DNA from: Halichondria panicea | Lineage: Eukaryota; Porifera; Demospongiae; Suberitida; Halichondriidae | Reading direction: 5' to 3' | NCBI RefSeq assembly: GCF_963675165.1 | Contig: NC_087383.1 | Coordinates: 4,494,979 to 4,558,978 of the forward strand | DNA: 64,000 bases | The notes under the pieces: generated by a model | Seen by the model: only the letters and a program-made list of their open reading frames with translations | What the model was told of the DNA's origin: nothing | Database searches by the model: none | Translations under genes and position numbers: made by a program | Part shown: positions 18,131 to 62,734 of the stretch, piece by piece | Layout: every line of letters starts with the position of its first letter | How positions within the stretch are numbered: the first letter of the stretch is position 1

Positions 18131-18847
18131 ATGAAGATATTCGCTTTCCTCCTGGTGTTAGTGGCTTTATGCTCACAACAGTTGGTGAATGGATCACTTG
18201 CGATAGATGTGCTGAAGGCAATTCAGATGAGCCAAAACAACAAAGAAGCCCTAACACAAGCATTGGTATTGCAAGCTTTAAAAGATTCGTCCAATGCAGT
18301 GAAAGAATCAAGAATTACCCATGAAGACAGGGGTAGAGCCCGCATTAGTCAAGCAGCGTCTTTCCTAACTATCCAGGACTGCGATACTGCTGGAAATATT
18401 GTAAATTCCATATTGCAGCCGGCACTAGGCTGGATTCCAGGCATTGCAAATGCTGTAAATGTTTTGGTCAACTGTGGAATATCGTCAGGCTGTACACAAG
18501 TGAGAGTCCAAGTACCAGCAGGAAATACCGTGGCTGATATTGATGTTTGCACTGTTAGCGGTAAATGAACCTTATATATTTAATGCATGCAGTAAATTAC
18601 AAGCAATAATTATAATAAGCTCTCCATAATTATAATCATTATGTTTATTCATACATATGCAGGCGGTGGTTTTTGTGTGGAGGTATATGGAGGTTCAGGT
18701 TCACCGTGTTCAGGTGGAATCCCATTCCCCATTCCCATCCCCATAGCTTCAACTGGAACAACTGCTCCAATCACACTGACGCTTAACATACTAGCCAATT
18801 GTGCGATGATTAACGTGGGAAATATCCAAACGTGTTCAAACAACTAA
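18131..18847 (+). CDS. Two-exon secreted 8-cysteine protein, copy A
   Basis: Exon 1 is 18131-18560, a 102-bp intron is bounded by GTAAAT and GCAG, and exon 2 is 18663-18847. The phase-1 junction falls inside a Gly codon. The product is 204 aa: signal peptide (residues 1 to about 21, ending QQLVNG), a helix-prone stretch (about 25-82), then Cys at 84, 115, 121, 140, 148, 159, 190 and 201, with a GGIPFPIPIPIAS segment at 161-173. No family was recognised. Eight mature cysteines and the leader suggest a disulfide-bonded secreted protein. Six near-identical copies lie in the window; A, B and C have identical exon 1 protein, and exon 2 protein is identical in all six. The short ATG-initiated frame usually read at exon 2 starts inside the intron and is not a separate gene. 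Confidence 0.85.
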
Positions 18848-19225
18848 AGAAGTAAAGAACATGCGTACTGCTGTAGAATATATATAGCTGTATTAAGTGA
18901 CTGGGAAATATAGTGTATATACCGAATACAACTATAGCTGAAGTATAGAATCTGTTTTGTAGTATATTGAATTCTTAAACATTATTTTGAGTTTACTATT
19001 AAAATATAGATCTACCATAGATATAATTAATATACTGCATGTATATATAATTACAGATATGTGTGCAAAATACCTTGGGACAGGCAGTATTCATATGATT
19101 GTACAAGATCGATGCATGAGCACAATTATATTGGCAAGCGATCTGATGCACATGCATAGCTGCTCTGAGTTAGATTATGCTTGATATAATTATTACTGAG
19201 TTAACAGCCTATTATTCAGTTATTA

Positions 19226-19262
19226 TGCCTAGGTGCGCATGCGCAAGCGAGGTATACGGTAG
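19226..19262 (+). repeat. R1 5'-end fragment
   Basis: 'gcctaggtgcgcatgcgcaa'-type start of repeat R1 up to GTGTGTTTGTG, then a switch to the TAGCCTCG-terminus sequence. The same junction is found near 48946 and 63128 and, inverted, near 53755-53790, so the junction predates the block duplications. Confidence 0.6.
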
Positions 19263-19341
19263 TGTGTTTGTGCTGTATTTTTCCTAGCCTCGATCCCATA
19301 GCTGCACTTTTATAACGATTAGGCGAACAACTAGTAGTCAA

Positions 19342-19370
19342 GAGCGCATAAAACCCTAACCCTAACCCCC
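19342..19370. repeat. Interstitial telomeric repeat at a truncated hairpin (copy A)
   Basis: GAGCGCATAAAA followed by CCCTAACCCTAACCC, then an abrupt switch to 'ccggccatgaccggacgg'. In copies D, E and F the telomeric motif is followed by the inverse stem TTTTATGCGCTC, so unit A carries a deletion here. Confidence 0.75.
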
Positions 19371-19372
19371 GG

Positions 19373-32325: not shown

Positions 32326-32458
32326 GTTTTTAACAACAATCATAGTCCATCATTACCCACCTTTGAGTTTCCCTATGACTCTGGATTCCGGATTTCAGCC
32401 TGCATGCAGCAAAATTCAAAATGTTCATCGTGATATAATGTGTGTATATGTGTATATT
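32326..32458 (+). repeat. R1 3' fragment
   Basis: 'tttttaacaacaatcatagt ... gcatgcagcaaaattcaaaa' corresponds to about 1350-1445; it continues the fragment at 31330-31361. Confidence 0.7.
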
Positions 32459-32899
32459 AAATTCATTATAGATAACACTCTAATACTTTTGAGCGAAAGC
32501 AAAAACATGGCGAGAGGCATTATTAGCACAGCGCCAGCTTGAACACTAGTTATTATATCAAGCATAATCTACCAACCCTATATATGTATCTAGCTCAGAG
32601 CAGCTATGTGCATCAGATTGCTTGCCAATATAATTGTGCTCATGCATCGATCCTGTACAATCATATGAATACTGCCTGTCCCAAGGTATTTTACACACAT
32701 ATCTATATACATGCAGTATAATTATAGTAATATCTATGGTAGATCTATACTTTAACTCAAAATAATGTTTAAGAATTCAATATACAACAAAACAGATTCT
32801 ATACTCCAGCTATAGTTGTATTCGGTATATACACTATATTTCCCAGTCACTTAATACAGCTATATATATTCTACAGCAGTACGCATGTTCTTTACTTCT

Positions 32900-33616
32900 T
32901 TAGTTGTTTGAACACGTTTGGATATTTCCCACGTTAATCATCGCACAATTGGCTAGTATGTTAAGCGTCAGTGTGATTGGAGCAGTTGTTCCAGTTGAAG
33001 CTATGGGGATGGGAATGGGGAATGGGATTCCACCTGAACACGGTGAACCTGAACCTCCATATACCTCCACACAAAAACCACCACCTGCATATGTATGAAT
33101 AAACATAATGATTATAATTATGGAGAGCTTATTATAATTATTGCTTGTAATTTACTGCATGCATTAAATATATAAGGTTCATTTACCGCTAACAGTGCAA
33201 ACATCAATATCAGCCACGGTATTTCCTGCTGGTACTTGGACTCTCACTTGTGTACAGCCTGACGATATTCCACAGTTGACCAAAACATTTACAGCATTTG
33301 CAATGCCTGGAATCCAACCTAGTGCCGGCTGCAATATGGAATTTACAATATTTCCAGCAGTATCACAGTCCTGGATAGTTAGGAAAGACGCTGCTTGACT
33401 AATGCGGGCTCTACCCCTGTCTTCATGGGTAATTCTTGATTCTTTCACTGCATTGGACGAATCTTTTAAAGCTTGCAATACCAATGCTTGTGTTAGGGCT
33501 TCTTTGTTGTTCTGGCTCATCTGAATTGCCTTCAGCACATCTATCGCAAGTGATCCATTCACCAACTGTTGTGAGCATAAAGCCACTAACACCAGGAGGA
33601 AAGCGAATATCTTCAT
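32900..33616 (-). CDS. Two-exon secreted 8-cysteine protein, copy B
   Basis: Exon 1 is 33616-33187, intron 33186-33085, exon 2 33084-32900. The predicted protein is the same as copies A and C (204 aa; Cys 84, 115, 121, 140, 148, 159, 190, 201). TATATAA on the minus strand at 33695-33689 ends 73 nt before the ATG. DNA differs slightly from A and C in flanks and silent sites, so it is not a copied sequence artefact at base level. See copy A for domain description. Confidence 0.85.
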
Positions 33617-34254
33617 TCTTGCTGCTGATACAAATTGGGTCCTTGGCTGCTTATGAGTTGCTTATACTTGCTCTCTGTTTTCAGCTCATTATATAGCCTG
33701 CATGCTGACCTCGGTACAGTATGCAGGCAGAATCCTTTTAACTGCCATTTTTAGTGAATGTAATGTGATCTGTGTATCCAAGAAAAGATTATAGAGTGTT
33801 GACCTAGTTAATTCTATTAGCACATCCCAATGGCAAAACATTTAGCAGTTACTATAAGAAGCCAGAGGAGGTTGATCACATTGTTAATTAATCTTCTTGT
33901 AACCTCCAATTCCGTGGAAACTTGAGAGAAAGTAGCTATCCTAGCTAAGCCAAAAGGCTGCAAACGATCATAGGCTTCTATACTAGTATATAGGAAATGA
34001 TGCTAACAATACTCAGTGATACTAGAAAGCATAGTCATGCTCAAAGTAATAAGCCAGAAACTAAGATTAGTCACAAAGTTCCATTTGTTGCTACACTTTC
34101 CTTGTTTCTTTGACTCCTGTCTTAATATAGCAAAAGGCCTATGATTGTTTTTCTAAAGCCGTCTATTATCATAAAGGTGCCCATTATGCCAGCATAATTC
34201 TCACACAAATAAGATGCCTATTTTGAGCATATATGCTAGCAAATCTATCAAGAC

Positions 34255-34500
34255 CTATATAGTTGCGAATCCAATTTGATTTATGTAAAACTTGCTAGAA
34301 TTCCCTCCCTCTATAAGCTGGTGGACACGCAACCATCGTATAAATTTAAAGCTATACACACGTGCTTGAGCACCCCATGCAGTTGTTGCCACAAGGCCTA
34401 CAACATGTCTTGAAGTCAAGCATCCTAGCTGTGTTTCACGATTCATAATTATTTTCACACCTTCTTTAGCAATGCGATTGAGTGTATTCTTTATGCTCAT
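34255..34500 (-). CDS. Hypothetical 81-codon frame upstream of gene B
   Basis: Open from MSIKNTLNRIAKEGVKIIMN to FYINQIGFATI, basic, no signal peptide, no recognised domain. Its mirror copy at 37707-37952 has the same predicted protein. In unit A the frame has a changed start and an in-frame stop (GGTGCTTAA). In D, E and F it is broken by small indels. It is therefore intact in only two of six units, which suggests it is not under constraint, or is a decayed exon. Confidence 0.25.
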   Translation of the reverse strand: MSIKNTLNRIAKEGVKIIMNRETQLGCLTSRHVVGLVATTAWGAQARVYSFKFIRWLRVHQLIEGGNSSKFYINQIGFATI

Positions 34501-35153
34501 GGAATTCTCCTAGAAAGCGCCCATTAAAGTGATTTTACTCATGTGTACCAGTGAAACCTGCACTTCAGCTCTAATGAGCACACACCAGATTAACAAGCAT
34601 AGATTTACCACAGATATGTGTTGTAATGACTTTGGTAGCTAGTTATTCACTTAGTCATTTCCTGTTCATAATATTTCCTGTGTTGTAATGTTTACTGTAC
34701 ATGCACATGAGTTCTTATTACTAGTTAACACTTCTTTTGTATATAGGTCTATCTTATTGCTTTGTGCTCTAGCCTGGCAGTCTGCTCCTAGCGGCGCCCT
34801 TTGTGTTTATCGGCTCATTCTGTGTAGGCAATCATTTCACTGATAAGTGCACCAATTAGGCCATCTGACATGGCCATTTTGTGTAGGCAGTCATTTCACT
34901 GATAAGTGCACCATTAATTAAGCTGGCTGGTATTCTGTGTAGGCAGTCATTTCATAAGTGCACCATCTGGCATTTGCACGTGTTTTAACAGAACCAACAA
35001 TTCCACTAGTCATGATGCATACATGATACATGATACAGTGAGAAGCCTCAGCCCACCATGCAACACCAATACAAACTGGAACAATTAATGTTATAATTAT
35101 TGTTGTGATACAGTATTACGTATTTCATTTATATAGCCAATAGTTAATCCCAT

Positions 35154-45418: not shown

Positions 45419-45653
45419 ATGTGATTAATGAACTAAGGGGTCCACCTCCTATGAGTATAGCGGTGCAAGTTGAAACATCTGCTCGGGTCCCAGCAATATC
45501 TTTGATTGACAACCACAGATTACCACCCATGTGATATACCCATGTGATAGGCATGCAGACCTCTTTCCCAGCATTTTCCTGCTATTTGCTTCTGCATGTT
45601 AAACAACGTTCTCTGCATGCATGTTATAGGCATGATTCTGTGCATGCATGTTA

Positions 45654-45781
45654 CACTGTAAAAAATGATGTGTGGTTTTGACGCAGAGTGCGTGGCTATT
45701 GTGGCAAACGTGCGTTTTTTCCTGATAGTTGCCACAATAGTCACGCACTTGCGTCAAAACCACACACCATTTTTTACAGTG
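45654..45781. mobile_element. MITE-3 copy with empty paralogous site
   Basis: CACTGTAAAAAATGATGTGT and its inverse ending TTTTTTACAGTG, 128 bp, TA on each side. The mirror position in the right arm (about 56775) and block Q copy 1 (about 12635) read through 'gcctataacat' without it. Confidence 0.9.
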
Positions 45782-47329
45782 TATAGGCATGATTCATAAT
45801 TATGTGCATCATTGGTCTCAGATTAGTTTACCTGGAAGTCTGGCAAGAGATGTTGTTGTTGTGGTCTAGACTACCAGACATACATACCCAAAATGAGAGC
45901 ACGCATGCACAGTATCTGGGATATGGAAAACCTATTATAGCTGTTTAGCTCCAAGAATAGATCTAATTTGATTGAATCAAGGATATGCAAGTTGACCACT
46001 GTGTGTATATGGATGCAAGTTCACCACGCATGTATATGGATGCATGCATGTTCTAGTTAATACCACAGAGGTATGATTTGACTTCTTTCCCATCTGGGCC
46101 ATGCAGCTTTCTCGCTTCTGTTTAGTCTAATCTAACTGTCTGCATGGGCTATACCAAAGTCATAATTCATGAATATAATTATAATGAGGGTAGTGCATGT
46201 ATATAGATCTATATAGGTGTTCATTTCGTATTATTGGTCTCAGATTACTCTGCCTGCAATTCATGCATGAGATATATATCACTTGATATTTGCCACAATA
46301 ATTATAGACACGCACTTTGCATAAAAACCACACATCATTTTGTACAGTGTATATGCATGCATGTGTTTCAGTTTGCAAAACCGACATGCACACATTAATA
46401 GCTATATTTTAGGCGGTAAGAAGTCCAATCGGTGATTAATGAACTATATTAAAGGTGTCAAGGTGGGTACATTATGCTGGTATATAATTATATAATGGGC
46501 ACACTTTGTTCAACAGCACTGCCAAACATGATTTTGAAATCTGATCTAGATTGACTTTTGAACTACGATTTTGGTTTCAAGTATTAATTTACTCATGAGT
46601 AAAATCACTTTAATGGGCACTTTCTAGAAGAATTCCATGAGCATAAAGAATTAAATGATGAATGTACTTGATTGCATTGCTAAAGAAGGTGTGAAAATAA
46701 TTATGAATCGTGAAACACAGCTAGGATGCTTGACTTCAAGACATGTTGTAGGCCTTGTAGGCCTTGTGGCAACAACTGCATGGGGTGCTCAAGCACGTGT
46801 GTATAGCTTTAAATTTGTATGATGGTTGCGTGTCCACCAGCATAGGAATTCTAGCAAGTTCTAATTGGACTCGCAACTATAAGTATATTGGTAGATTATA
46901 TGCTAGCATAATTATATGCTAGCATAATTATATGCTCAAAATAGGCATCTTATTTGTGTAAGAATTATGCTGGCATAATGGGCACCTTTATTTATGATAA
47001 TAGACGGCTTTGGAAAAACAATCGTAGGCCTTTTGCCGTAATAATTATATATGCATAATTTCTCATAATGCATGCATTGGTAGATATAGTTATCTCCTTA
47101 GCATGCATGGCATGATATTCTAGGTTAGATCTATAGTGTCATACATTGACCATTATAAAGTTTGTGATGTTACTCGGATGGTATCAATGGTGTGGTCTAC
47201 GTTAAGCTTGTGGTTTATAGAAGAAATTGAAAAGGAGAATTATAATTATAGGAAATGTCTTGAGCATAGACTGCATGCGGTTGCCCATGCAAGCGGTGTA
47301 TTGTATTCACTGCTCTGAAGTCAGCTATA

Positions 47330-47469
47330 CACTGTAAAAAATGATGTGTGGTTTTGACGCAGAGTGCGTGGCTATTGTGGCAAACGTGCGTTTTTTCTTG
47401 CGTTTTTTCCTGATAATTGCCACAATAGTCACACACTTGCGTCAAAACCACACACCATTTTTTACAGTG
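47330..47469. mobile_element. MITE-3 copy inserted only in unit D
   Basis: CACTGTAAAAAATGATGTGT ... CATTTTTTACAGTG, 140 bp, TA duplication at 47328-47329 and 47470-47471. Unit E at about 55250 shows the empty site 'cagctatatagtatgg' (as its reverse complement). Relative to 45654-45781 the loop repeats 'cttgcgtttttt'. Confidence 0.92.
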
Positions 47470-47822
47470 TATAGTATGGAATCTGGATGAGTATAATTAT
47501 ACATGTCTGCATGTATATAGCAGGTTTTGTGACACAATGGGCTCATTAATTGGTATACAATGTGTATTGTGATCGTGTGCATCTTAGTAACTGCTAAATG
47601 TTTTGCCATTGGAATGTGCTAATAGAATTAACTAGGTCAACCCTTCATAACCTTTTCTTGGATACACAGATCACATTACATTCACTAAAAATGGCAGTTA
47701 GAAGGATTCTGCCTACATACTGTACCGAGGTCAGCATGCAGGCTATATAATGAGCTGAAAACAGAGAGCGAGTATAAGCAACTCATAAGCAGCCAAGGAC
47801 CCAATTTGTATCAGCAGCAAGA

Positions 47823-48541
47823 ATGAAGATATTCGCTTTCCTCCTGGTGTCAGTGGCTTTATGCTCACAACAGTTGGTGAATGGATCACTTGCGATAGAT
47901 GTGCTGAAGGCAATTCAGATGAGCCAAAACAACAAAGAAGCCCTAACACAGGCATTGGTATTGCAAGCTTTAAAAGATTCGTCCAATGCAGTGAAAGAAT
48001 CAAGAATTACCTATGAAGACAGAGGTAGAGCCCGCATTAGTCAAGCAGCGTCTTTCCTAACTATCCAAGACTGTGATACTGCTGGAAATATTGTAAATTC
48101 CATATTGCAGCCGGCACTAGGCTGGATTCCAGGCATTGCAAATACTGTAAATGTTTTGGTCAACTGTGGAATATCGTCAGGCTGTACACAAGTGAGAGTC
48201 CAAGTACCAGCAGGAAATACCGTGGCTGATATTGATGTTTGCACCGTTAGCGGTAAATGAACCTTATACATTTAATGCATGCAGTAAATGTATAGTGCAA
48301 TAATTATAATAAGCTCTCCATAATTATAATCATTATATTTATTCATACATATGCAGGTGGTGGTTTTTGTGTGGAGGTATATGGAGGTTCAGGTTCACCG
48401 TGTTCAGGTGGAATCCCATTCCCCATTCCCATCCCCATAGCTTCAACTGGAACAACTGCTCCAATCACACTGACGCTTAACATACTAGCCAATTGTGCGA
48501 TGATTAACGTGGGAAATATCCAAACGTGTTCAAACAACTAA
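47823..48541 (+). CDS. Two-exon secreted 8-cysteine protein, copy D
   Basis: Exon 1 is 47823-48252, intron 48253-48356 (104 bp), exon 2 48357-48541. Differences from A: Val to Ser in the leader (LLVSVALC), His to Tyr (ITYEDRG) and Ala to Thr (IANTVNV). All eight mature cysteines are kept and exon 2 protein is unchanged. TATATAA at 47744-47750. The intronic ATG seen in other copies is ATA here without consequence, which supports the spliced model over a separate exon 2 gene. Confidence 0.85.
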
Positions 48542-49053
48542 AGAAGTAAAGAACATGCGTATACTGCTGTAGAATATATATAGCTGTATTAAGTGACTGG
48601 GAAATATAGTGTATATACCGAATACAACTATAGCTGGAGTATAGAATCTGTTTTGTAGTATATTGAATTCTTAAACATTATTTGAGTTTACTATTAAAAT
48701 ATAGATCTACCATAGATATAATTAATATACTGCATGTATATACAGATATGTGTGCAAAATACCTCGGGACAGGCAGTATTCATATGATTGTACAAGATCG
48801 ATGCATGAGCACAATTATATTGGCAAGCGATCTGATGCACATATAGCTGCTCTGAGTTAGATACATATACTATTAGAGGTTGGTAGATTATGCTTGATAT
48901 AATTATTACCGAGCTAACAGCCTATTATTCAGTTATTATGCCTAGGTGTGCATGCGCAAGCGAGGTATACGGTAGTGTGTTTGTGCTGTATTTTTCCTAG
49001 CCTCGATCCCAGGCCGCGCTTTTATAACGATTAGGCGAACAACTAGTAGTCAA

Positions 49054-49096
49054 GAGCACATAAAACCCTAACCCTAACCCTCTCTTTTATGCGCTC
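49054..49096. repeat. Telomeric repeat in the loop of a hairpin (copy D)
   Basis: Stem GAGCACATAAAA / TTTTATGCGCTC (one mismatch) around the loop CCCTAACCCTAACCCTCTC. Confidence 0.85.
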
Positions 49097-49913
49097 TGGC
49101 CTGGTACTAGTTGTCTGCGCATGCATGCGTCAGTCGTTCGTCAGATTCTGACGAATGTATATTCTCGTTCAGTGACATTTTTTATTGGTATACCATCGTG
49201 TATACTAGCCAGTATCCCGTTTATTAGAGGAATGGCTCTTAGCTGAAGCTTTTGTCTTTCCTGAAGCTTAGAAAACATTATTCTGAAGAATTCTTAAGAC
49301 AAAGTAAGTGAAGAGGCTGTAAAGCTTTATCAAGCTTGTCAAGGTCAGATCTTTTTGTGTGGTTCTATCAATTAAGTCATAGATTTTGTAGGATACCCTT
49401 GGATTAGTTTAAATATTTTCACTTGACTTTTCACTGATATACAAAGTACCATGTGCTATATACTATAGAACATATCACATGCCGAGCATAATACAACATG
49501 AACAAAAAACAACTTAGAATGGACATGACTATTATCGGCCATAGGCCTGAACATACCACCGGCCATGACCGGACGGTGTTATAGGAGCGAGTGACTCCCC
49601 AAATAATGTCTCCCGGTCACTCCTATACCTAGTCACCAGTGATCGACCCCAGGTCACTCACGCCTAGGAATAAAAAAACGTAAGGTGTTAGGTATAATTA
49701 TGCAGACTATAGCAGACCTCTTTCTCTGTGCTTCTGTGTACATAACACTCTGTACATGTAGGTCTTTACTTATAATTATGTGCATCACATTCAGGGGTGG
49801 ATCCAGGATTCTTGATAGGGGGAGCTAAAAATATTTTACTAAAAAAAAAAAAAAAAAAAGGTCATCTGTTTTCAAGCACAATGTGTTTCCTGCATGACTG
49901 ACTCATCAAGTTC

Positions 49914-50730
49914 TAGCCTCGATTCCAGGCCGCTATTTAGGCCTTGTGAAGGTAGACTCGCAAGCCACTCCCTTTTCTCTGATTGGACGGGGGCGGGAGA
50001 AAAGGGACTGGTGACTCTGGGACACATTTTGTGTCTCTACCAGAATTTGGGTAGAGATTATTCATTGATTTTTCCACGTGATCCAAAAATTGCGTGAGGT
50101 TAAGTAGAATTGCGTAGCCTGCAAAAGTGATCGCGGGCTTCTTAGCTACAGTTTAAGAATGGATGCTAGTGCTAGAAAAGAGAAGATGATGGAGTAATAA
50201 CATCATCAGGCATTCAGCTAGGATATAGTCATCTAAGACACCAGCAGAGATTAGCTTGTTTTAGTTTTACGTGATGAGAACTGGCAGCCGAAAGTCATTG
50301 GTTGCCTAAAGCTTTTAATAACCTGTACAATACAAGACAGATAATGGCAGAGGGCAGCAGTTGAATTGAGAGTAGTCAGACTTGTACAAGCTGTCTTAAA
50401 TCGCTGCCACTCCTCGGTTCAAAGAAGGACTGCCAAGATTTCTACGTTCATCAGCTGTTCCATGCTAATCCACAAGTTGTGGCACAACAGACACTGGTAC
50501 AAGGATCTATAAAATCAAAAGGCTGGCTAGATAGATCTGTATACTTGTCTTCTGTGTGTCTTTAGCTTTTGACGCATCAGAATAAATTGGATAATTTGCA
50601 CGTGACATTAATAGTTAATAGCATTCCTGATTTACACAAGCTGTAGCCCAGAGTCACCAGTCCCTTTTCTCCCGCCCCCGTCCAATCAGAGAAAAGGGAG
50701 TGGCTTGCGAGTCTATTGTGAAGGAGGCTA
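49914..50730. mobile_element. TAGCCTCG-type element, first of a tandem pair
   Basis: Starts TAGCCTCGATTCCAGGCCGC and ends 'gtgaaggaggcta', with a 75-bp inner inverted repeat (GACTCGCAAGCCACTCCCTT at about 49947 and its inverse near 50700). Flanked by ATCAAGTTC at 49905-49913 and 50731-50739. The interior has no recognised gene. Confidence 0.88.
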
Positions 50731-50739
50731 ATCAAGTTC

Positions 50740-51540
50740 CAGCCTCGGTCCCAGGCCGATTTTTCTTTAATAGAACGAAGTTGAAAAATACGGCCTGGTA
50801 TTGATTGTATCTGGGCGTGGCAGGAACCGGAAACAAAAGCAGAGATTCTTTACATTTTGTTTCCTGCTTTTTTTCTGTAATACTAAAGGTGTACGTAGAG
50901 GCATTTTACTCCCGTAAAAGTTACAGTAATGTAGCTCCGTGTTATGTTCTCAATTTATAGCTAGCTAGCTATGGCATGCAACGCGTTGTCTTGTTTGAAG
51001 CAAGATGGCCTCACTCTCATGGCAGAACAGGCCCAGGCTCTCAAGCTCCTGTTTGAGGGAAGGGACGTGTTTATCTGGTTCCCAACGGGGTATGGCAAGT
51101 CTCTCTGCTATATCAGTTGCTACCCTTTTTAATGGACTACAAGCTAGGTAGGACCAAGGCTCCTCCTGTTGACAAAAGTGTTGTTCTTGTTAATTGTCTC
51201 TCCCTTTGTATCTCTCATCATGAGACTCATGATTGACCAGGTCAGGAGTCTAAACAATAGCGGTGTTTCTGCTGCCATCCTCAGTAGCAATAAAGGAATC
51301 GACAAAGATTTGGTTGCCACTGCCAAAGAAGTGTCTTCTGGGAAGTATTTCCTGCTGTATACTGCCCCAGAGGTTGTTGTTGAAGACCACTGTTGGAGGA
51401 TTAATTTTTTGTTGTACCACAGAGTCAATTTGTTTTATATTAAAAAACCACGCCCAGATCACGCCCAAATACAATCAATACCAGGCCTAGTAGGCGACCT
51501 AGCGTTCAATTGGAGACGGATCGGCCTGGTGTCGAGGCTA
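50740..51540. mobile_element. TAGCCTCG-type element, second of a tandem pair, carrying a RecQ fragment
   Basis: Starts CAGCCTCGGTCCCAGGCCGA and ends TCGGCCTGGTGTCGAGGCTA, flanked by ATCAAGTTC at 50731-50739 (shared with the previous element) and 51541-51549. About 800 bp. An inverted copy of its first 340 bases forms 1-342. Confidence 0.88.
50971..51375 (+). pseudogene. RecQ-like helicase fragment inside a TIR element
   Basis: From ATG at 50971: LKQDGLTLMAEQAQALKLLF, then WFPTGYGKSLCY (Walker A). A 2-base TA insertion then shifts the frame away from LLPFLMDYKLG. One base too many near 51192 shifts it again before VSPFVSLIM. The motif Ia region reads SLIMRLMIDQVRSL, with LIM/LMI looking like a short duplication. 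After SSGKYFLLYTAPE the similarity fades. Motifs II-VI are absent. It is a captured and decayed helicase fragment; a related start is present at 1-111 (-). It is distinct in sequence from the 41.9-43.2 kb helicase. Confidence 0.75.
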
Positions 51541-51719
51541 ATCAAGTTCATGCTCAGAGTAATAAACTGGGTGTGGCCTAGCATCGAGGCTAGGTGTGGC
51601 CATGATAATGTAACCGCAGTGAGCCTTGATAGCTCTAGATTCTATTTTTCAGGCTTGTCATCAAGTCAAGGGGGGTGCTCAAGCCCCCAAAGCGCCCCAC
51701 TGGATCCGCCACTGACATT

Positions 51720-52358
51720 GACCTCTCAGATTACTTTACCTGCATAAAAGTCTGCTTGGTAAGAGATGTACAGTTATGTTCCAGTAAGACTACTGGGAAA
51801 ACCTGTTCAGCTCTATTATATAAGGACAGTTAAGAATTACATGCATAATGCCATTGTGTACACAGAGGCAGACCATTTCCCATGGGCCATGCAGCATTAC
51901 TCTGTTTAATAAGGTGGGAAAAACGCATGTTTATTACTGTATCCCTGAGAAACTTTTATGAGTCCCACATTTTATACTAGCAACACAGCATACAAAAGTA
52001 CATGGAAAATATACTGCAGCTGGTCTAACATGTATATCACATGTTAAAAACAAATTTTTGGGGTAAGTTTGTGGACAGGAAATAGCGGGTGAGTGTAATG
52101 CGGAATGGAATGGAATATGGAACGGAATATGGAATGACAAACTTAGTAATAAAAAGAGAGCTGCTGATGGTGCTCTGTATTTTTTTTAGTGTAGTATGAC
52201 ATAAATACTTGTAAAAAGTGTTACATTATAAACACACAGTTAATTTTAGAAGACTGTTAGATTCTAATTGAATTTCTGGGATATAACATACAAATTACAT
52301 GCATATACACATTGTACAGTGTCTAGCTTTAGCCAAGTATAATTATGCTGTGCCTAAA
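51720..52358. other. No gene; diverged relative of palindrome 2 outer sequence
   Basis: 51790-51960 ('cacagaggcagaccatttcc', 'gagtcccacattttat') resembles a diverged copy of 44290-44420. A pentanucleotide-like GGAATGGAATATGGAA stretch lies at 52102-52136. Confidence 0.5.
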
Positions 52359-53091
52359 TTAAACAAGTAAAGTGTTGAATATATACCTGCAAAGTTTTGG
52401 CCCTTGGTGAAACTTTAAACAATTTGTGCGTATTGAAGAGACAACACTGACCAAGCCTTTTGCCACAATTATTAGGTTGTAAAGTCTGATGATCTCAATT
52501 TTGTCTTGAGGAATGCCCAAATACACGGCAAATGATTGTGGATTTGTGAGAGTGCTCAGTTCCTTATATAAAAGAGGTAGTGTAAAATCTGGAATGGCTG
52601 TAGGAGAATACACCATCGAACAAGTCATTCAAGTAGTTTAACAGTAAAATCAAGCTGTGAATTTGCAGTGCACATATTTGCTTAGGCTAAGCTATGCGCT
52701 CAACTATACTATATAATTATACTCAAATCACTATAGTCATTTATATAGATCTATATATTATTATGTAAAACACCATCAGCAGGCACTTAGCTTATTGCTC
52801 TACACCTTCGTGTTGCTGACATTTTGAGGGTTGAAGTGTAGTTGCTACTCCATCGGTATTTCCGTGATGTAAGTCTTGTGTTTTCTTACCACTGTTGTTT
52901 GAAGTCAGTTCATCTTGTGAGCCATTATTGGAGTGATGTGATGAGTCAGCACTAGGGTTGTGTACGGCTTCATACTCATCTGAAAACAAATCGACATCCG
53001 AAGTGCCGCTTTCAATCTGTTCGTCAGACAGTTGTTGTTCCAATATACAATCTAGAAGCTCATCCCACATTTGAAGGAACTCAGCCAACAT
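52359..53091 (-). CDS. Tentative two-exon gene with possible Death-like segment
   Basis: First exon from the ATG at 53091-53089 (MLAEFLQMWDELLDCILEQQ, then an acidic, Ser/Asn-rich, probably disordered stretch to about 52800). A good acceptor (ttctcctacag) near 52590 opens a second exon, AIPDFTLPLLYKELSTLTNP followed by FAVYLGIPQDKIEIIRLYN, ending at a CAG/GTATAT donor near 52388. The 'LYKELS ... YLGIP..KIE.I' pattern recalls the first helices of Death-fold domains, which are very numerous in sponges; this is a weak likeness. Junction phase and 3' exons were not established. It lies in the spacer of palindrome 2. Confidence 0.3.
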
Positions 53092-53145
53092 CTATATACA
53101 TAATGGTGTGTAAAGAAATTCACTTAATAATTGTGACATGATTTT

Positions 53146-53622
53146 ATGTCTCGGTGCGCATGCACAAGCGTGGTATACAGTAGTGTGTTTGTGTGTGTAT
53201 CTGTGTGTGTGTCTGTGTGTGTGTGTGTGTGTGTGTAGACTGCTACAGCTGCTCAAGGATCAATGAAGTGCAAGTAAGAGTTTCTATATAGGCTTCTAGA
53301 AATTCGTGGCCATTTGCAAAATAATGCTTTGTTCTCGAGTTATGCCTTATACACTTGGAATACCATTGATTGCAGCCTTTTCAGAAGAGTGCGTAGAATA
53401 ACTTGTTCACCGAGTGTTGCTACTCTACTTGTAGTTAGCTCTGCACTAGAACGCTAGCTATTGGTAGCTGCAAGAGTTGAGAAGAGAGCTGCAAGGCTCT
53501 GCTGATGCGCAGCCATTCATTTAGACTTGGATTTTTGGCATCGATCATTTTTAATAATCATGGCCGATCCTTACCCGATTATCTTCGAGAGTTTTCTGGA
53601 TTCTGCCTTTGCATGCACAGCA
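53146..53622 (+). repeat. R1, long copy
   Basis: Matches 948-1430: 'ctcggtgcgcatgcacaagc', a TG run (about 53184-53236), then GAACGCTAGCTA and 'gagaagagagctgcaaggct', ending at 'gcatgcacagc'. Confidence 0.8.
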
Positions 53623-53629
53623 AGGCCAA

Positions 53630-53670
53630 GAGCGCATAAAAGAGAGGGTTAAGGTTAGGGTTTTATGCGA
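53630..53670. repeat. Telomeric repeat in the loop of a hairpin (copy E)
   Basis: GAGCGCATAAAA, GAGAGGGTTAAGGTTAGGG, TTTTATGCGA: inverse orientation of copy D, with one imperfect telomeric unit. Confidence 0.8.
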
Positions 53671-54179
53671 CTACTATAGTTGTTCGCCTAATCATTATAA
53701 AAGCGCGGCCTGGGATCGAGGCTAGGAAAAATACAGCACAAACATACTACCGTATACCTCGCTTGCGCATGCACACCTAGGCATAATAACTGAATAATAG
53801 GCTGTTAACTTGGTAATAATTATCTCAAGCATGCATAATCTACCAACCCCTATATGTATCTAGCTCAGAGCAGCTATGTGCATCAGATCGCTTGCCAATA
53901 TAATTGTGCTCATGCATCGATCCTGTACAATCATATGAGTACTGCCTGTCCCGAGGTATTTTGCACACATATCTATATACATGCAGTATAATTATAGTAA
54001 TATCTATGGTAGATCTATACTTTAACTCAAAATAATGTTTAAGAATTCAATATTATTACTACAAAACAGATTCTATATACTCCAGCTAGTTGTATTCCTT
54101 CTTATGGTATACACTATATTTCCCAGTCACTTAATACAGCTATATATATTCTACAGCAGTACGCATGTTCTTTACTTCT

Positions 54180-54895
54180 TTAGTTGTTTGAACACGTTTG
54201 GATATTTCCCACGTTAATCATCGCACAATTGGCTAGTATGTTAAGCGTCAGTGTGATTGGAGCAGTTGTTCCAGTTGAAGCTATGGGGATGGGAATGGGG
54301 AATGGGATTCCACCTGAACACGGTGAACCTGAACCTCCATATACCTCCACACAAAAACCACCACCTGCATATGTATGAATAAACATAATGATTATAATTA
54401 TGGAGAGCTTATTATAATTATTGCACTATACATTTACTGCATGCATTAAATATATAAGGTTCATTTACCGCTAACGGTGCAAACATCAATATCAGCCACG
54501 GTATTTCCTGCTGGTACTTGGACTCTCACTTGTGTACAGCCTGACGATATTCCACAGTTGACCAAAACATTTACAGCATTTGCAATGCCTGGAATCCAGC
54601 CTAGTGCCGGCTGCAATATGGAATTTACAATATTTCCAGCAGTATCACAGTCTTGGATAGTTAGGAAAGACGCTGCTTGACTAATGCGGGCTCTACCCCT
54701 GTCTTCATGGGTAATTCTTGATTCTTTCACTGCAGACGAATCTTTTAAAGCTTGCAATACCAATGCCTGTGTTAGGGCTTCTTTGTTGTTTTGGCTCATC
54801 TGAATTGCCTTCAGCACATCTATCGCAGGTGATCCATTCACCAACTGTTGTGAGCATAAAGCCACTGACACCAGGAGGAAAGCGAATATCTTCAT
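54180..54895 (-). CDS. Two-exon secreted 8-cysteine protein, copy E
   Basis: Exon 1 is 54895-54469, intron 54468-54365, exon 2 54364-54180; 203 aa. An in-frame 3-base deletion removes Asn (DSSAVKES). The leader has LLVSVALC and the mature start SPAID, as in copy F. All cysteines and the whole exon 2 protein are unchanged. TATATAA (minus) at 54974-54968. The only indel in exon 1 among six copies is a multiple of three, consistent with coding constraint but a sample of one. Confidence 0.85.
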
Positions 54896-56988
54896 TCTTG
54901 CTGCTGATACAAATTGGGTCCTTGGCTGCTTATGAGTTGCTTATACTCGCTCTCTGTTTTCAGCTCATTATATAGCCTGCATGCTGACCTCGGTACAGTA
55001 TATGCAGGCAGAATCCTTCTAACTGCCATTTTTAGTGAATGTAATGTGATCTGTGTATCCAAGAAAAGGTTATGAAGGGTTGACCTAGTTAATTCTATTA
55101 GCACATTCCAATGGCAAAACATTTAGCAGTTACTAAGATGCACACGATCACAATACACATTGCATACCAATTAATGAGCCCATTGTGTCACAAAACCTGC
55201 TATATACATGCAGACATGTATAATTATACTCATTCAGATTCCATACTATATAGCTGACTTCAGAGCAGTGAATACAATACACCGCTTGCATGGGCAACCG
55301 CATGCAGTCTATGCTCAAGACATTTCCTATAATTATAATTCTCCTTTTCAATTTCCTCTATAAACCACAAGCTTAACGTAGACCATACCATTGATACCAT
55401 CCGAGTAACATCACAAACTTTATAATGGTCAATGTATGACACTATAGATCTAACCTAGAATATCATGCCATGCATGCTAAGGAGATAACTATATCTACCA
55501 ATGCATGCATTATGAGAAATTATGCATATATAATTATTACGGCAAAAGGCCTACGATTGTTTTTCCAAAGCCGTCTATTATCATAAATAAAGGTGCCCAT
55601 TATGCCAGCATAATTCTTACACAAATAAGATGCCTATTTTGAGCATATAATTATGCTAGCATATAATCTACCAATATACCTATAGTTGCGAGTCCAATTA
55701 GAACTTGCTAGAATTCCTATGCTGGTGGACACGCAACCATCATACAAATTTAAAGCTATACACACGTGCTTGAGCACCCCATGCAGTTGTTGCCACAAGG
55801 CCTACAATATGTCTTAAAGTCAAGCATCCTGTGTTTCACGATTCATAATTATTTTCACACCTTCTTTAGCAATGCAATCAAGTACATTCATCATTTAATT
55901 CTTTATACTCATGGAATTCTTCTAGAAAGTGCCCGGGATTTTACTCATGAGTAAATTGATACCAAATGATATACTTGAAACCAAAATCGTAGTTCAAAAG
56001 TCAATCTAGATCAGATTTCAAAATCATGTTTGGCAGTGCTGTTGAACAAAGTGTGCCCATTATATAATTATATACCAGCATAATGTACCCACCTTGACAC
56101 CTTTAATATAGTTCATTAATCACCGATTGGACTTCTTGCCGCCTAAAATATAGCTATTATTATACATTAATGTGTGCATGTCGGTTTTGCAAGCTAAAAC
56201 ACATGCATGCATATACACTGTACAAAATGATGTGTGGTTTTTATGCAAAGTGCGTGACTATAATGATTGTGACAAATATCAAGTGATATAATTTTTTATA
56301 TCTCATGCATGAATTGCAGGCAGAGTAATCTGAGACCAATAATACGAAATGAACACCTATATAGATCTATATATGCATGCACTACCCTCATTATAATTAT
56401 ATTCATGAATTATGACTTTTGGTATAGCCCATGCAGACAGTTAGATTAGACTAAACAGAAGCGAGAAAGCTGCATGGCCCAGATCATACCTCTGTGGTAT
56501 TAACAAGAACATGCATGCATCCATATACATGCGTGGTGAACTTGCATCCATATACACATGCAGTGGTCAACTTGCATATCCTTGATTCAATCAAATTAGA
56601 CCTATTCTTGGAGCTAAACGGCTATAATAGGTTTTCCATATCCCAGATACTGTGCATGCATGCTCTCATTTTGGGTATGTATGTCTGGTAGTCTAGACCA
56701 CAACAACAACATCTCTTGCCAGACTTCCAGGTAAACTAATCTGAGACCATTGATGCACATAATTATGAATCATGCCTATAACATACATGCATGCACAGAA
56801 CGTTGTTTAACATGCAGAAGCAAATAGCAGGAAAATGCTGGGAAAGAGGTCTGCATGCCTATCACATGGGTATATCACATGGGTGGTAATCTGTGGTTGT
56901 CAATCAAAGATGTTGCTGGGACCCGAGCAGATGTTTCAACTTGCACCGCTACTCATAGGAGGTGGACCCCTTAGTTCATTAATCACAT

Positions 56989-57196
56989 TACCGTATAGCG
57001 GGTAATTTTCGTGGGGTAAAATATTCGTTATTTTCGTGGGCAGGCTGACTCCACGAAATTTTAACGTAGGCGTGGCTTATCGGAACGTAGGAATGCCGTG
57101 CAGCCACGAGACTAAACGAAATTTTTACTCACGAAAACCACCGTTTCTCGAGTTAAACAAATTTTTTACCCTACGAAACTTACCCGCTATACGGTA
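56989..57196. mobile_element. MITE-2 copy in block Q copy 3
   Basis: TACCGTATAGCGGGTAATTT ... CGAAACTTACCCGCTATACGGTA, 208 bp. Confidence 0.85.
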
Positions 57197-57205
57197 CAAC
57201 ATAAA

Positions 57206-57433
57206 TACCATATAGCGCGAAATTTTAGAGGGGCTTAATTTTCGCGGATTTCGTGGGTTAGAATCCTACACGAAAATTAAGTCCACAAAAATTGTATTAC
57301 CTGCTATAACATGCATAGATTTAAAGGCATGGCTTCCGGTAAGCAGTCATTCCGCGAACATTGTGCAATGAAATAGCTTTTAGAGGCTAATCCACGAAAT
57401 ATAAGTGCCTCGAAAATTTCGCGCTATACGGTA
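57206..57433. mobile_element. MITE-1 copy in block Q copy 3
   Basis: TACCATATAGCGCGAAATTT ... AAATTTCGCGCTATACGGTA, 228 bp, opposite orientation to the copy at 12161. Confidence 0.85.
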
Positions 57434-58491
57434 GCTTCTATTACAAAAAGTTAGATTTATAGATGTTAAAGCTTCGTTGTCTAGTAAAAGCGAGCAAATA
57501 AAAAGCTTGAACTTGCAACGTGGTTATAATAAAGAAACACAGTTTTGATTCCTTGCTGACTCTGCTGTGATAGTCTCATGCAGTGCATGACCTATACGAC
57601 GTACTGCAGATGCTGTTCTCAAAGCCTAGTTACTACAGCTTTGGATAACGTTCATGCACATGAACACCCCTCTATACTGAGTTTTAGCTCAATAGTTATT
57701 GCCTTGTTAAGTTTCTGCATGGTGGCTTATTCCTCAATCATACAATGTCATGCATTACTGATTTAAACACCATGGATATAACACTGCACTCATCATCAGT
57801 ATTCTTGGTTCAGTCTGCTCTATACTAGGTAGTCCACAGTATATGCTCTCAAGTCCTTAGCTCTTAATGGAGTATATACGAGTGCATGCATGGAACAGGA
57901 GGATGTAGTTATTTCAGGCCCTCTGGTGCATGGGTTGATACCTAATTGCCATGGATACTTCAAGCCTCTGCATCTGAGCAGTCTCCTGTCTACAAACTGA
58001 CCCGAAAAATTCACATCATACATGTTAGACCGTGCAGCTGCAGTATTGTCCTTTTATGCTATGTCGTTGAGTAAAAAAATTAATGTGCATGAGTGCATGC
58101 CTGATGGGACTCAAAACTTTCTTTGTTCTCTGGATACAACATGGAACTTAATTTTGTTTTTTATATCATTAACAGAATAACATTATAATGCTGCATGGCA
58201 CAGCATGCATGGGAAAAGGTCTGCCTCTGTGGTAATTAACAAAAAGTCCGTACACAATGACATCATGCTGGTGTAGCATGGGAAAAGTTCTGCCTCTGTG
58301 GTAATTAACAAGAAATCCACACAATGACATCATGCATAATTATACAGTACAAATATAACGCTCTGTGTACATCTTCATTCATAATTTATGTGCATCATAT
58401 TGGCCTCTTCATTATGAGAGTCTGGGAAGAGGTGTTATGTTGTAGTCTACCAGCATAATAATGATAATGATAACCTCCCTCCCTCAGTAGT

Positions 58492-58638
58492 CAGAGGAGG
58501 TCCGACAGGCGTGGTGCAGCTCAAGTATAATTAACCTTTGATTACTCTCAGCAAAAACATACGACGTGGGCGGATAATTATTGCTCAATCCAAGGCTAAT
58601 TGCCAGAGCTGCACCCCGCCTGTCCTATACCTCCTCTG
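58492..58638. mobile_element. MITE-4 copy with 9-bp target duplication
   Basis: CAGAGGAGGTCCGACAGGCG ... ACCTCCTCTG, flanked by CTCAGTAGT at 58483-58491 and 58639-58647. Same insertion as 14226-14370, carried along with the surrounding block. Confidence 0.88.
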
Positions 58639-60259
58639 CTCAGTAGTGGTAAGGTGATTCCCACAAACCAGAAACAAGACATTAATTAACATTGGCCTAA
58701 GTGTGCATGTTGGGGTAGTGCCATAAAATATGCCTCAAAGGATTACAGTGTTACTCAACTATATATTATAGAGTTACATAATTCAAACACTTTTAATAAT
58801 ATAGGTAAACCAGTTTGGACTAGTTTGACAAACTCTGGTATCTGATGCAAGACTAAGTGTGCCCATGGATCAGCATTAAATCAGTATAGCACATATAAAT
58901 TATGGAACTATTAGCATAATTTTAAGCAAAATCAAGCAATAATCTGGATTGATGCCTGTAGAAAGCACCATGGGATTAAAAAAACTATTGACTCAATGAA
59001 ATACGTAATGCTGTATCACAACAACATTAATTGTTCGTTCCAGTTTGTATTGGTGTTGGTGGGCTGAGGCTCCTCACTGTATCATGTATATGCATCATGA
59101 TTAGTGGAATTGTTGGTTCTGTTAAAACACATGCAAATGCCAGATGGGCCTCTCAGGTATAATTAATGGTGCACTTATAAAATGACTGCCTACACAGAAT
59201 GCCAGCCGCCTAATTAATGGTGCACCTATCAGTGAAATGACTGCCTATACACAAAATGCCACAGGGCCTAATTGGTGCACTAATTATCAATGAAATGACT
59301 GCCTATACACAGAATGTCACATTAATAGTGCATTTAATGTATACACAGAATATACTGGGAAAGAGAGTTTGACCTTATATACACATATCTATAAAAATAA
59401 TAATAATATGGTAAATCCACCTTGTTAATCTAATTATCGTGGTGTGTGCTCATTAAAGTGAAGTGCATGGTTTTCACTGGTACTGCATGGTCTCACATTT
59501 CATTCCTAGGTATGCCTGGTACTTGACTACAGCAATAACATCTTTTACTGAGGCTCTTATACTGCTCTGGGATGGGTACACACTAGCTGTGAAATTAATA
59601 ATTATTAGGACCAAGAAACATTTGGTCTTAATAATTTTAGTTGCTGGATTGGCTGGATTGGCCGGGGAAACATGCACCAAAAGGCATATATAAGTAATAG
59701 GGGGAAAGCTGAGCTGAGGTCTGTCTATAGTTGTTATGAAAAGTGAATACTAGATCTAGTGCAAGTGCATGACAAATTTGTTCAGTCTGTCTCACTCAAC
59801 TGAATGCGATATAGCACTGTGATAGGATATATATAGGCCTCAACACAACAAGGTATATAGTAGTTTAACGTTAACAGATTTTGATGTTAAAGCTTTGGTG
59901 TCGAATAAAAGCTAAAAGCTCGAACCAGTACGTTTAAAACGACTTTCTTCTGATGACTAGCAGATTGCATGAGCAAATAATGATCAGAAGATAGGTGTGC
60001 ATGCGTGCATGTTGGGGTAGTGCCATAAAATATGACTCAAAGCGTTTAAGGATTACAGTGTTACTCAACTATAGAGTTACATAATTCAAACAATTATAAT
60101 ATAGGTAAACCAGTTCAGACTAGTTTGACAAACTCTGGTATATATAATTATTCTGATGCAAGACTATAAGTGTGCCCATGGATAACAGATCAGCATTAAA
60201 TCAGTATAGCATGCACATATAAATTATGGAACTATTAATTCAGTGCATAATTTTAAGCC

Positions 60260-60292
60260 TATATATATATATATGTATATGTATATATATAT
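60260..60292. repeat. AT microsatellite
   Basis: (TA)n with two GTATAT interruptions, 33 bp. Confidence 0.8.
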
Positions 60293-62027
60293 CAAATAAT
60301 CTGGATTGATGCATGTATAGAAAGCACCATGGGATTAACTATTGGCTATATAAATGAAATACGTAATACTGTATCACAACAATAATTATAACATTAATTG
60401 TTCCAGTTTGTATTGGTGTTGCATGGTGGGCTGAGGCTCCTCACTGTATCATGTATCATGTATGCATCATGATTAGTGGAATTGTTGGTTCTGTTAAAAC
60501 ACATGCAAATGCCAGATGGTGCACTTATGAAATGACTGCCTACACAGAATGCCAGCCAGCCTAATTGGTGCACTTATCAATGAAATGACTGCCTATACAT
60601 ATATACACAGAATGTCACATTAATGGTGCACTTAATGATGCAGAATATACTGGGAAAAAGAGTTTGACCTTATACACATGTTGAGTTCGTGCACCGAGCA
60701 GCGTGTGGCATGCAGTTCAAGATTAAGATTAATAACATTCAACCATGCATAGATCAAATGACAGTATGCACAAAACATAGACAGTAAATATACTAAGACA
60801 ACAAAGACAGTGGAGCAGACGCTCCCATACACAAAGGGTGCCGCTAGGAGCAGACTGCCAGGCTAGAGCACAAAGCAATAAGATAGACCTATACAAAAGA
60901 AGTGTTAGCTAGTAATAAGAACTCATGCGCATGTACAGTAAACATTACAACACAGGAAATATTATGAACAGGAAATGACTAAGTGAATAACTAGCTAGCA
61001 AAGTCATTACAACACATATCTCTACGCTTGTTAATCTGGTATGTGCTCATTAGAGCTGAAGTGCAGGTTTCACTGGTACTCATGAGTAAAATCGCTTTAA
61101 TGGGCGCTTTCTAGGAGAATTCCATGAGCATAAAGAATAAATGATGAATGTACTCAATCGCATTGCTAAAGAAGGTGTGAAAATAATTATGAATCGTGAA
61201 ACACAGGATGCTTGACTTCAAGACATGTTGTAGGCCTTGTGGCAACAACTGCATGGGGTGCTCAAGCACGTGTGTATAACTTTAAATTTGTATGATGGTT
61301 GCGTGTCCACCAGCTTATAGAGGGAGTGAATTCTAGCAAGTTTTACATAAATCAAATTGGACTCGCAACTATATAGGTCTTGATAGATTATGCTAGCATA
61401 TATAATTATATGCTCAAAATAGGCATCTTATTTGTGTGAGAATTATGCTGGCATAATGGGCACCTTTATGATAATAGACGGCTTTAGAAAAACAATCATA
61501 GGCCTTTTGCTATATTAAGACAGGAGTCAAAGAAACAAGGAAAGTGCAGCAACAAATGGAACTTTGTGACTAATCTTAGTTTCTGGCTTATTACTTTGAG
61601 TATGACTATGCTTTCTAGTATCACTGCATGAGTATTGTTAGCATCATTTCCTACTAGTATAAAAGGCTATGATTGTTTGCAGCCTTTTGGCTTAGCTAGG
61701 ATAGCTACTTTCTCTCAAGTTTCCACGGAATTGGAGGTTACAAGAAGATTAATTAACAATCGTGACCAACCTCCTCTGGCTTCTTATAGTAACTGCTAAA
61801 TGTTTACCATTGGGATGTGCTAATAGAATTAACTATAGGTCAACACTCTATAACCTTTTCTTGGATACACAGATCACATTACATTCACTAAAAATGGCAG
61901 TTAAAAGGATTCTGTCTGCATACTGTACCGAGGTCAGCATGCAGGCTATATATAATGAGCTGAAAACAGAGAGCGAGTATAAGCAACTCATAAGCAGCCA
62001 AGGACCCAATTTGTATCAGCAGCAAGA

Positions 62028-62734
62028 ATGAAGATATTCGCTTTCCTCCTGGTGTCAGTGGCTTTATGCTCACAACAGTTGGTGAATGGATCACCTGCGA
62101 TAGATGTGCTGAAGGCAATTCAGATGAGCCAAAACAACAAAGAAGCCCTAACACAAGCATTGGTATTGCAAGCTTTAAAAGATTCGTCCAATGCAGTGAA
62201 AGAATCAAGAATTACCCATGAAGACAGGGGTAGAGCCCGGATTAGTCAAGCAGCATCTTTCCTAACTATCCAGGACTGTGATACTGCTGGAAATATTGTA
62301 AATTCCATATTGCAGCCGGCACTAGGCTGGATTCCAGGCATTGCAAATGCTGTAAATGTTTTGGTCAACTGTGGAATATCGTCAGGCTGTACACAAGTGA
62401 GAGTCCAAGTACCAGCAGGAAATACCGTGGCTGATATTGATGTTTGCACCGTTAGCGGTAAATGACATTATTTTAATGCATGCAGTAAATGTATAGTGCT
62501 AATAAGCTCTCCATAATTATAATCATTATGTTTATTCATACATATGCAGGCGGTGGTTTTTGTGTGGAGGTATATGGAGGTTCAGGTTCACCGTGTTCAG
62601 GTGGAATCCCATTCCCCATTCCCATCCCCATAGCTTCAACTGGAACAACTGCTCCAATCACACTGACGCTTAACATACTAGCCAATTGTGCGATGATTAA
62701 CGTGGGAAATATCCAAACGTGTTCAAACAACTAA
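62028..62734 (+). CDS. Two-exon secreted 8-cysteine protein, copy F
   Basis: Exon 1 is 62028-62457, intron 62458-62549 (92 bp, shortest of the six), exon 2 62550-62734; 204 aa. Leader LLVSVALC and mature start SPAID as in copy E, otherwise the protein of copy A. TATATATAA at 61947-61955 still ends 73 nt before the ATG. Cysteines are unchanged. Confidence 0.85.

What the first reader, a model, noticed from the sequence alone, without database searches (positions are those of the whole stretch)
18131..62734. Six near-identical copies of an unrecognised two-exon secreted 8-cysteine gene
Copies at 18131 (+), 33616 (-), 38593 (+), 47823 (+), 54895 (-) and 62028 (+) share the splice junction, the TATA box at the same distance from the ATG and all eight mature cysteines. 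Exon 2 protein is identical in all six. Only four residues and one in-frame codon deletion vary in exon 1. The family is not one I recognise. Presence of multiple copies in a transposon-rich array suggests dosage amplification of a secreted product, or simply very recent duplication.
Basis: partly seen in the sequence, partly recalled or inferred. Interest (0 to 1): 0.8.

Follow-up and report, generated by a model that had tools for sequence, protein, structure and literature searches.

The report
Sponge-like orphan secreted-protein gene array
A small animal genome, probably a sponge's, carries six almost identical, apparently intact copies of a gene for a secreted-type, cysteine-rich protein that matches no family in the libraries searched, and the pattern of changes suggests that natural selection keeps the protein working while the copies exchange DNA.

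Summary
Six two-exon genes lie at the stated places; each encodes a 203-204 aa protein with a signal-like start and eight cysteines after it. Four residues and one codon deletion vary, all in exon 1. The family is larger: an older seventh copy 17 kb beyond the window, an intact paralogue on another chromosome, one frameshifted copy and one exon fragment. Pfam and NCBIfam give nothing at cut-off; PHROGs, PADLOC and PDB nothing at E <= 0.001; the prokaryote, viral, phage and plasmid searches nothing. No other animal genome could be searched. Among the six, 4 of 14 coding substitutions change the protein (75% expected; P = 2.9e-4), so they are not drifting freely. Site patterns conflict (94 of 253 pairs; at least five recombination events), so copies exchange sequence. 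Against the distant paralogue dN/dS is about 0.9-1.1, with eight cysteines kept. Best reading: a lineage-restricted secreted disulfide-rich protein, amplified by direct and inverted duplication and kept alike by recombination and purifying selection, probably for dosage. Its job is inferred only: a defence or microbe-facing effector is my first guess, a matrix protein the main rival. Ordinary as a gene array; the protein is an uncharacterised orphan.

The parts
18131..18847 (+). copy 1: exon 1 18131-18560, intron 18561-18662 (102 bp), exon 2 18663-18847 with stop; TATA-like box 18052-18058
32900..33616 (-). copy 2: exon 1 33616-33187, intron 33186-33085 (102 bp), exon 2 33084-32900; TATA-like box 33695-33689
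38593..39306 (+). copy 3: exon 1 38593-39022, intron 39023-39121 (99 bp), exon 2 39122-39306; TATA-like box 38514-38520
47823..48541 (+). copy 4: exon 1 47823-48252, intron 48253-48356 (104 bp), exon 2 48357-48541; TATA-like box 47744-47750
54180..54895 (-). copy 5: exon 1 54895-54469 (one codon shorter), intron 54468-54365 (104 bp), exon 2 54364-54180; TATA-like box 54974-54968
62028..62734 (+). copy 6: exon 1 62028-62457, intron 62458-62549 (92 bp), exon 2 62550-62734; TATA-like box begins 61947, two bases longer
32454..39724 (.). inverted repeat carrying copies 2 and 3: arms 32454-35700 and 36509-39724 (98.4% identical), assembly gap 35701-35900 near its centre
44238..58288 (.). second inverted duplication carrying copies 4 and 5: blocks within 44238-49102 pair with blocks within 53623-58288 (93.5-96.7% identical)
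17614..17880 (.). dispersed repeat just upstream of the promoter region of copy 1; also upstream of copies 2, 3 and 6, and in 34 listed matches outside the array (a lower bound: 40 of 265 candidates were scored)

Best explanation
A lineage-restricted gene for a small secreted, disulfide-rich protein (signal-like first 21 aa; about 62 aa without cysteine; about 120 aa with eight cysteines, four from each exon) was amplified into a local array by direct and inverted segmental duplication. The copies exchange sequence (gene conversion or unequal crossing-over) and are under purifying selection, so the array delivers one product at raised dosage from TATA-containing promoters. Shown: gene models, copy structure, excess of synonymous change, recombination between copies. 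Inferred: splicing, secretion, disulfides, expression, dosage. For the role I commit to a secreted defence or microbe-facing effector, because between old paralogues the protein changes almost as fast as silent sites while the cysteine count stays fixed, and the family has both intact and broken members; this last step is inference only.
For: Eight members (six window copies, seventh copy, C3 paralogue) have an open spliced frame and nine cysteines each; seven of the eight cysteines after the signal align in one column across the three-member alignment, the remaining one is offset by one or two residues. Intron lengths are 102, 102, 99, 104, 104, 92, 87 and 88 bp: in four of eight not a multiple of three, and in the six window copies exon 1 runs into a stop in the intron, so exon 2 is reached in frame only by splicing. 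Substitutions among the six: 4 non-synonymous, 10 synonymous; P = 2.9e-4 against 75% expected. Coding columns vary less than non-coding columns of the unit (14/612 against 36/573, P = 7e-4). Recombination: 94 of 253 informative site pairs fail the four-gamete test, minimum five events. Between the two flank groups the upstream block differs by 5.4-7.5% and core non-coding by 2.2-4.8% (nominal P < 0.05 in 4 of 8 pairs); within groups the core is the more different part in 7 of 7 pairs, as expected if cores but not flanks are exchanged. TATA-like boxes at -79 or -81 (six copies), -69 (seventh), -84 (C3).
Against: No transcript, protein or phenotype was seen; no signal-peptide predictor was run. 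The flank-versus-core contrast is nominally significant in only 4 of 8 between-group pairs and 1 of 7 within-group pairs, uncorrected. Polymorphism against divergence differs for C3 (P = 0.006) but not for the seventh copy (P = 0.077). dN/dS to C3 is 0.87 (bootstrap 0.60-1.25) or 1.09 by a second method, so relaxed constraint explains it as well as selection for change. The only structure model has mean pLDDT 35. Nothing ties the protein to defence by sequence.
Confidence: 0.5

Rival explanations
1. The array makes a structural or matrix protein in bulk (mesohyl, cuticle or skeleton), amplified for supply rather than for defence.
For: Near-identical copies and purifying selection suit bulk supply. 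An open frame with a weak collagen-repeat match (below Pfam's cut-off) and a multicopper oxidase gene lie upstream in the window.
Against: No repeated units: the two cysteine-bearing halves are no more alike than shuffles (311, 542 and 486 of 1000 reach the score in three proteins). Of 20 Cu-oxidase_3 matches none lies beside the other paralogues; the nearest to C3 is about 207 kb away. Old paralogues diverge fast at the protein level.
Confidence: 0.3
2. Passive, very recent duplication with no selected role for copy number: the copies are alike only because they are young and lie in a duplication-prone, repeat-rich region.
For: Direct and inverted duplications with dispersed repeats in the flanks. 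Low silent divergence among copies, dS up to 0.04. Exon 2 lacks even silent variation except one site.
Against: Free drift predicts about 10.6 of 14 substitutions non-synonymous; 4 were seen. The six copies are intact, whereas a broken copy and a fragment exist elsewhere.
Confidence: 0.15
3. Assembly artefact: part of the array is one locus written twice, for example two haplotypes joined in inverse orientation at the 200-N gap.
For: Copies 33616 and 38593 mirror each other across the only N run; arms are 98.4% identical and the two proteins are identical.
Against: Similarity stops at 32454 and 39724 although sequence continues on both sides with other copies, so two haplotypes of one locus would have to differ entirely just outside. 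It could remove one copy at most; the other four carry their own differences.
Confidence: 0.05

Closest known systems
Photoprotein gene clusters of the ctenophore Mnemiopsis leidyi (PMC3570280; passages seen, with part of the abstract)
   Different: A known family with a known job (light production). The gene here is an orphan with no known job. A comparison of how it evolves, not of kinship.
Chondrosin of the demosponge Chondrosia reniformis (PMC7459819; abstract and passages seen)
   Same: Secreted, 21-aa signal, no close BLAST match in that paper, similar length (199 aa) and acidic mature pI (5.11; here 5.17 for copy 1).
   Different: Signal cleavage reported between AEA and SK (here the signal-like stretch ends VNG); mature 178 aa and 19,611 (here 183 aa and 18,751 for copy 1). 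Its sequence is in a figure and could not be compared.
Ependymin-related proteins, 17 genes in Amphimedon queenslandica (PMC6280359; passages seen, with part of the abstract)
   Same: Secreted cysteine-bearing family with sponge expansions.
   Different: No Ependymin match among the Pfam rows of three members scanned; the paper gives a conserved cysteine at alignment position 23, here the first after the signal is residue 83-88.
Calcarins, galaxin-like proteins of the sponge Sycon ciliatum (PMC12419799; passages seen)
   Same: Secreted cysteine-rich family grown by gene duplication.
   Different: Contain 10-23 di-cysteines; the five proteins checked here have none.

Membership tests
Chondrosin | sequence identity to chondrosin | not testable with these tools
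   Sequence given in a figure of PMC7459819; not available here as text.
Chondrosin | signal cleavage AEA|SK, 199 aa, mature mass 19,611 | tested here: not met
   Here VNG|S by eye, 203-204 aa, mature mass 18,621-18,807 in three of the six window proteins; so not the same protein, kinship open.
Ependymin-related proteins | Ependymin profile match | tested here: not met
   Not among the rows for three members against Pfam with limit E = 10, though HMMER's filters drop most matches above 0.1.
Ependymin-related proteins | conserved cysteine near the start of the mature protein | tested here: not met
   First cysteine after the signal is residue 83-88 in five proteins; reference pattern.
Galaxin / calcarin | many di-cysteines | tested here: not met
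   No CC pair in five proteins checked.
Concertedly evolving gene array (a kind, not a homology family) | exchange of sequence between copies | tested here: met
   94 of 253 site pairs incompatible, minimum five events.
Concertedly evolving gene array (a kind, not a homology family) | purifying selection on the product | tested here: met
   4 N against 10 S, P = 2.9e-4.
Concertedly evolving gene array (a kind, not a homology family) | copies closer to each other than to orthologues in other species | not testable with these tools
   No related animal genome is held.
Transposon cargo | gene found at many dispersed places inside a repeat unit | tested here: not met
   Ten exon-1-side matches (nine loci) and eleven exon-2-side matches in the genome, seven of each in one cluster; the C3 paralogue shares only about -99 to +730 with the window unit.

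The most novel reading that the evidence does not exclude
A new fold family of secreted eight-cysteine effectors private to one sponge lineage, whose array is kept uniform by recombination between inverted copies while single-copy paralogues diversify at near-neutral protein rates: homogenised dosage in the array and diversification outside it.
Probability: 0.25. Interest if true: 0.6.

Novelty: new member of a known kind. Interest (0 to 1): 0.38.

Why it matters
If expressed and secreted, this is an amplified gene with no known relative in an early-branching animal, in an array small and varied enough to watch sequence exchange between direct and inverted copies. It also offers a contrast between a homogenised array and fast-changing single paralogues with the same number of cysteines.

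Tried and rejected
Chondrosin as identity: rejected on length, cleavage site and mass. Ependymin-related and galaxin-like families: rejected. Weak matches dismissed: Ribosomal_S28e, E 0.25, below cut-off, and E 0.18 at best, where two other families at E 0.12 matched one member each; phrog_28566 E 0.36; seven PDB rows up to E 10, the best an endoglucanase II chain at E 0.025 over residues 119-171, the others GH61 proteins, not recovered with the three-member profile (0 matches). Bacterial, viral or mobile origin: nothing in viral contigs, genome contigs, plasmids or phages; reach was limited, since searches used only peptides from the signal-like start and need an exact match to one motif. Internal duplication of the two cysteine halves: not above shuffles (311, 542 and 486 of 1000). 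Linkage to multicopper oxidase genes: none seen beyond this window. Structure prediction: one job, a single sequence with the intron read through, mean pLDDT 35, useless; no fold search was run. A codon-model run in iqtree2 printed no omega and was not used. Species: not found. Searches for assembly size and contig lengths gave no sponge assembly that fits; the 11 sponge assemblies whose sizes show in the listing have other sizes; a COX1 search gave one short nuclear stretch only. Paper searches that could have shown the family (lists capped at 20 of 33 and 20 of 27) showed none in titles or the abstract beginnings; of papers I saw listings, abstracts and passages, never a whole text, so absence from print is claimed only for those searches. 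An early impression, from gapped identities, that upstream flanks of the two subgroups differ by 14-20% was corrected to 5.4-7.5% with indels left out. Dropped before counts: 11 synonymous changes were counted and one, a by-product of the codon deletion, was dropped, leaving 10; columns at -1050 to -240 and +1000 to +1240 were left out of the coding/non-coding test because the copies are not all homologous there (162 of 511 and 114 of 207 columns vary); the six pairs with the seventh copy were not used, as that upstream alignment is doubtful (38.5-40.2% different).
Full report
Host. The window is C7:4494979-4558978 of an unnamed 131.5-Mb genome in 39 contigs. It is an animal by its 28 homeodomain matches, of which 14 control genomes have none; a weak collagen-repeat match in the window (below Pfam's cut-off) agrees. 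The small genome and few homeodomains fit a sponge; that is inference with recalled background, and the species was not identified.

Observation. Exon 1 is 430 bp (427 in 54895), the intron 92-104 bp, exon 2 185 bp with the stop; splice sites are the same in six of six. The product has a hydrophobic start ending VNG (signal inferred from sequence; no predictor was run), about 62 residues without cysteine, then cysteines at 84, 115, 121, 140 (exon 1) and 148, 159, 190, 201 (exon 2), numbered in copy 1. Exon 2 protein is the same in six of six. TATA-like boxes lie at -79 in five and -81 in one.

Wider family. Genome searches give ten matches for the exon-1 side (nine loci, E <= 0.001) and eleven for the exon-2 side (E <= 10). 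Beyond the six: a seventh copy at C7:4575804, 17 kb past the window (87% in exon 1); an intact paralogue on C3 (57-59% in exon 1); a copy at C7:3.11 Mb whose exon 1 frame is broken, whose exons lie about 1.6 kb apart and which shows no TATA-like box within 150 bp; an exon-2 fragment on C8 with an early stop. The eleventh exon-2 match, on C6 (E 1.27, two stops), I take as chance. The seventh copy and C3 keep the splice position and eight cysteines after the signal; in the alignment seven of these stand in one column and the sixth in order is offset by one or two residues.

Is it a working gene? Intron lengths over eight members are 102, 102, 99, 104, 104, 92, 87 and 88 bp; four are not multiples of three, and exon 1 of the six window copies runs into a stop just inside the intron. 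Yet the spliced frame is open in eight of eight. Among the six, coding columns vary at 14 of 612 and non-coding columns of the unit (-238 to -1, intron, +717 to +1000) at 36 of 573 (P = 7e-4). Of the 14 coding substitutions 4 change the protein; 75% would be expected from site counts (459.7 N, 149.3 S), P = 2.9e-4. So the copies have been under purifying selection for part or all of their separate lives. Exon 2 varies at 1 of 185 columns, against 13 of 427 in exon 1 (P = 0.075) and 36 of 573 non-coding (P = 6e-4).

How the array formed. Copies 2 and 3 lie in arms of one inverted repeat (32454-35700 and 36509-39724, 98.4%), copies 4 and 5 in a second inverted duplication (blocks within 44238-49102 and 53623-58288), copies 1 and 6 in direct orientation. 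By upstream flank there are two groups: 18131, 33616, 38593, 62028 share a dispersed repeat close to the promoter; 47823 and 54895 lack it. At 6 of 9 informative 3' sites (867-899 and 975) the grouping is different: 33616, 38593, 54895 against 18131, 47823, 62028. Such conflict needs exchange or repeated mutation: 94 of 253 pairs of informative sites (23 sites) show all four combinations; minimum five events. Repeated identical mutation could cause some of these but is unlikely for a run of sites that agree. Between the two flank groups (8 pairs) the shared upstream block differs by 5.4-7.5%, core non-coding by 2.2-4.8% and coding by 0.8-1.5%; flank exceeds core in 8 of 8, nominally significant in 4. 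Within groups (7 pairs) it is the other way round: core exceeds flank in 7 of 7, nominally significant in 1 (no correction for multiple tests, and pairs share copies). That reversal is what exchange of cores, but not flanks, between groups would leave.

Long-term pattern. dN/dS is 0.44 to the seventh copy (bootstrap 0.25-0.70) and 0.87 to C3 (0.60-1.25) by NG86; YN00 gives about 0.54 and 1.09 for copy 1. Change inside the array against divergence outside it differs for C3 (4:10 against 116:51, P = 0.006) and not clearly for the seventh copy (4:10 against 39:29, P = 0.077). Relaxed constraint or selection for change after duplication would each do; the data do not separate them.

What is it? 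No match at the curated cut-off in Pfam or NCBIfam and none at E <= 0.001 in PHROGs, PADLOC or PDB sequences, and nothing in prokaryote, viral, phage or plasmid DNA within the reach of the scans made. These collections are not of animals, so 'orphan' means orphan in what could be searched. The one structure model was useless. Closest in manner of evolution are the Mnemiopsis photoprotein clusters, reported to be under purifying selection and concerted evolution (passages). Chondrosin is alike in size, signal length and acidity but differs in cleavage site, length and mass.

Verdict. A real, intact, recombining array of an uncharacterised secreted-type gene under purifying selection. The kind of array is known; the protein is new to the libraries searched. 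Function is inferred, with a secreted defence or microbe-facing effector somewhat ahead of a matrix protein.

Noticed in passing
window 35701-35900: The only N run in the window, 200 N, lies near the centre of a 98.4% inverted repeat; a palindrome may have broken the assembly here.
   Followed up: partly
window 5480-7810 (+): Single-exon multicopper oxidase of 776 aa with three Cu-oxidase Pfam domains; the genome search gave 20 Cu-oxidase_3 matches, including one about 54 kb upstream of it with an internal TGA.
   Followed up: partly
window 2749-4165 (-): Open frame with a weak collagen-repeat match (22 bits, cut-off 27.2) followed downstream by a cysteine-bearing open frame with no Pfam or PDB match; perhaps a short-chain collagen with an unassigned tail domain.
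   Followed up: partly
window 42083-43218 (-): Nearby open frames match DEAD helicase and, below cut-off, helicase C-terminal domain; perhaps a split or decayed helicase gene.
   Followed up: no
window 40504-40941 (+): Open frame with a zf-AD match above the Pfam cut-off (31.7 against 28 bits); zf-AD is best known from insects (recalled).
   Followed up: no
window 20382-21381: About 1 kb of overlapping direct repeats at about 80% identity, with a low-complexity open frame on the minus strand.
   Followed up: no
window 17614-17880 and 16525-16660: Two dispersed repeats found at many places genome-wide; the first has a short inverted partial match near 12 of its hits, as in a small inverted-repeat element.
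   Followed up: partly
L015 (G000:C1:5280527-5280718): Short COX1-like stretch with two TGA codons on a chromosome; perhaps a nuclear copy of mitochondrial DNA.
   Followed up: no
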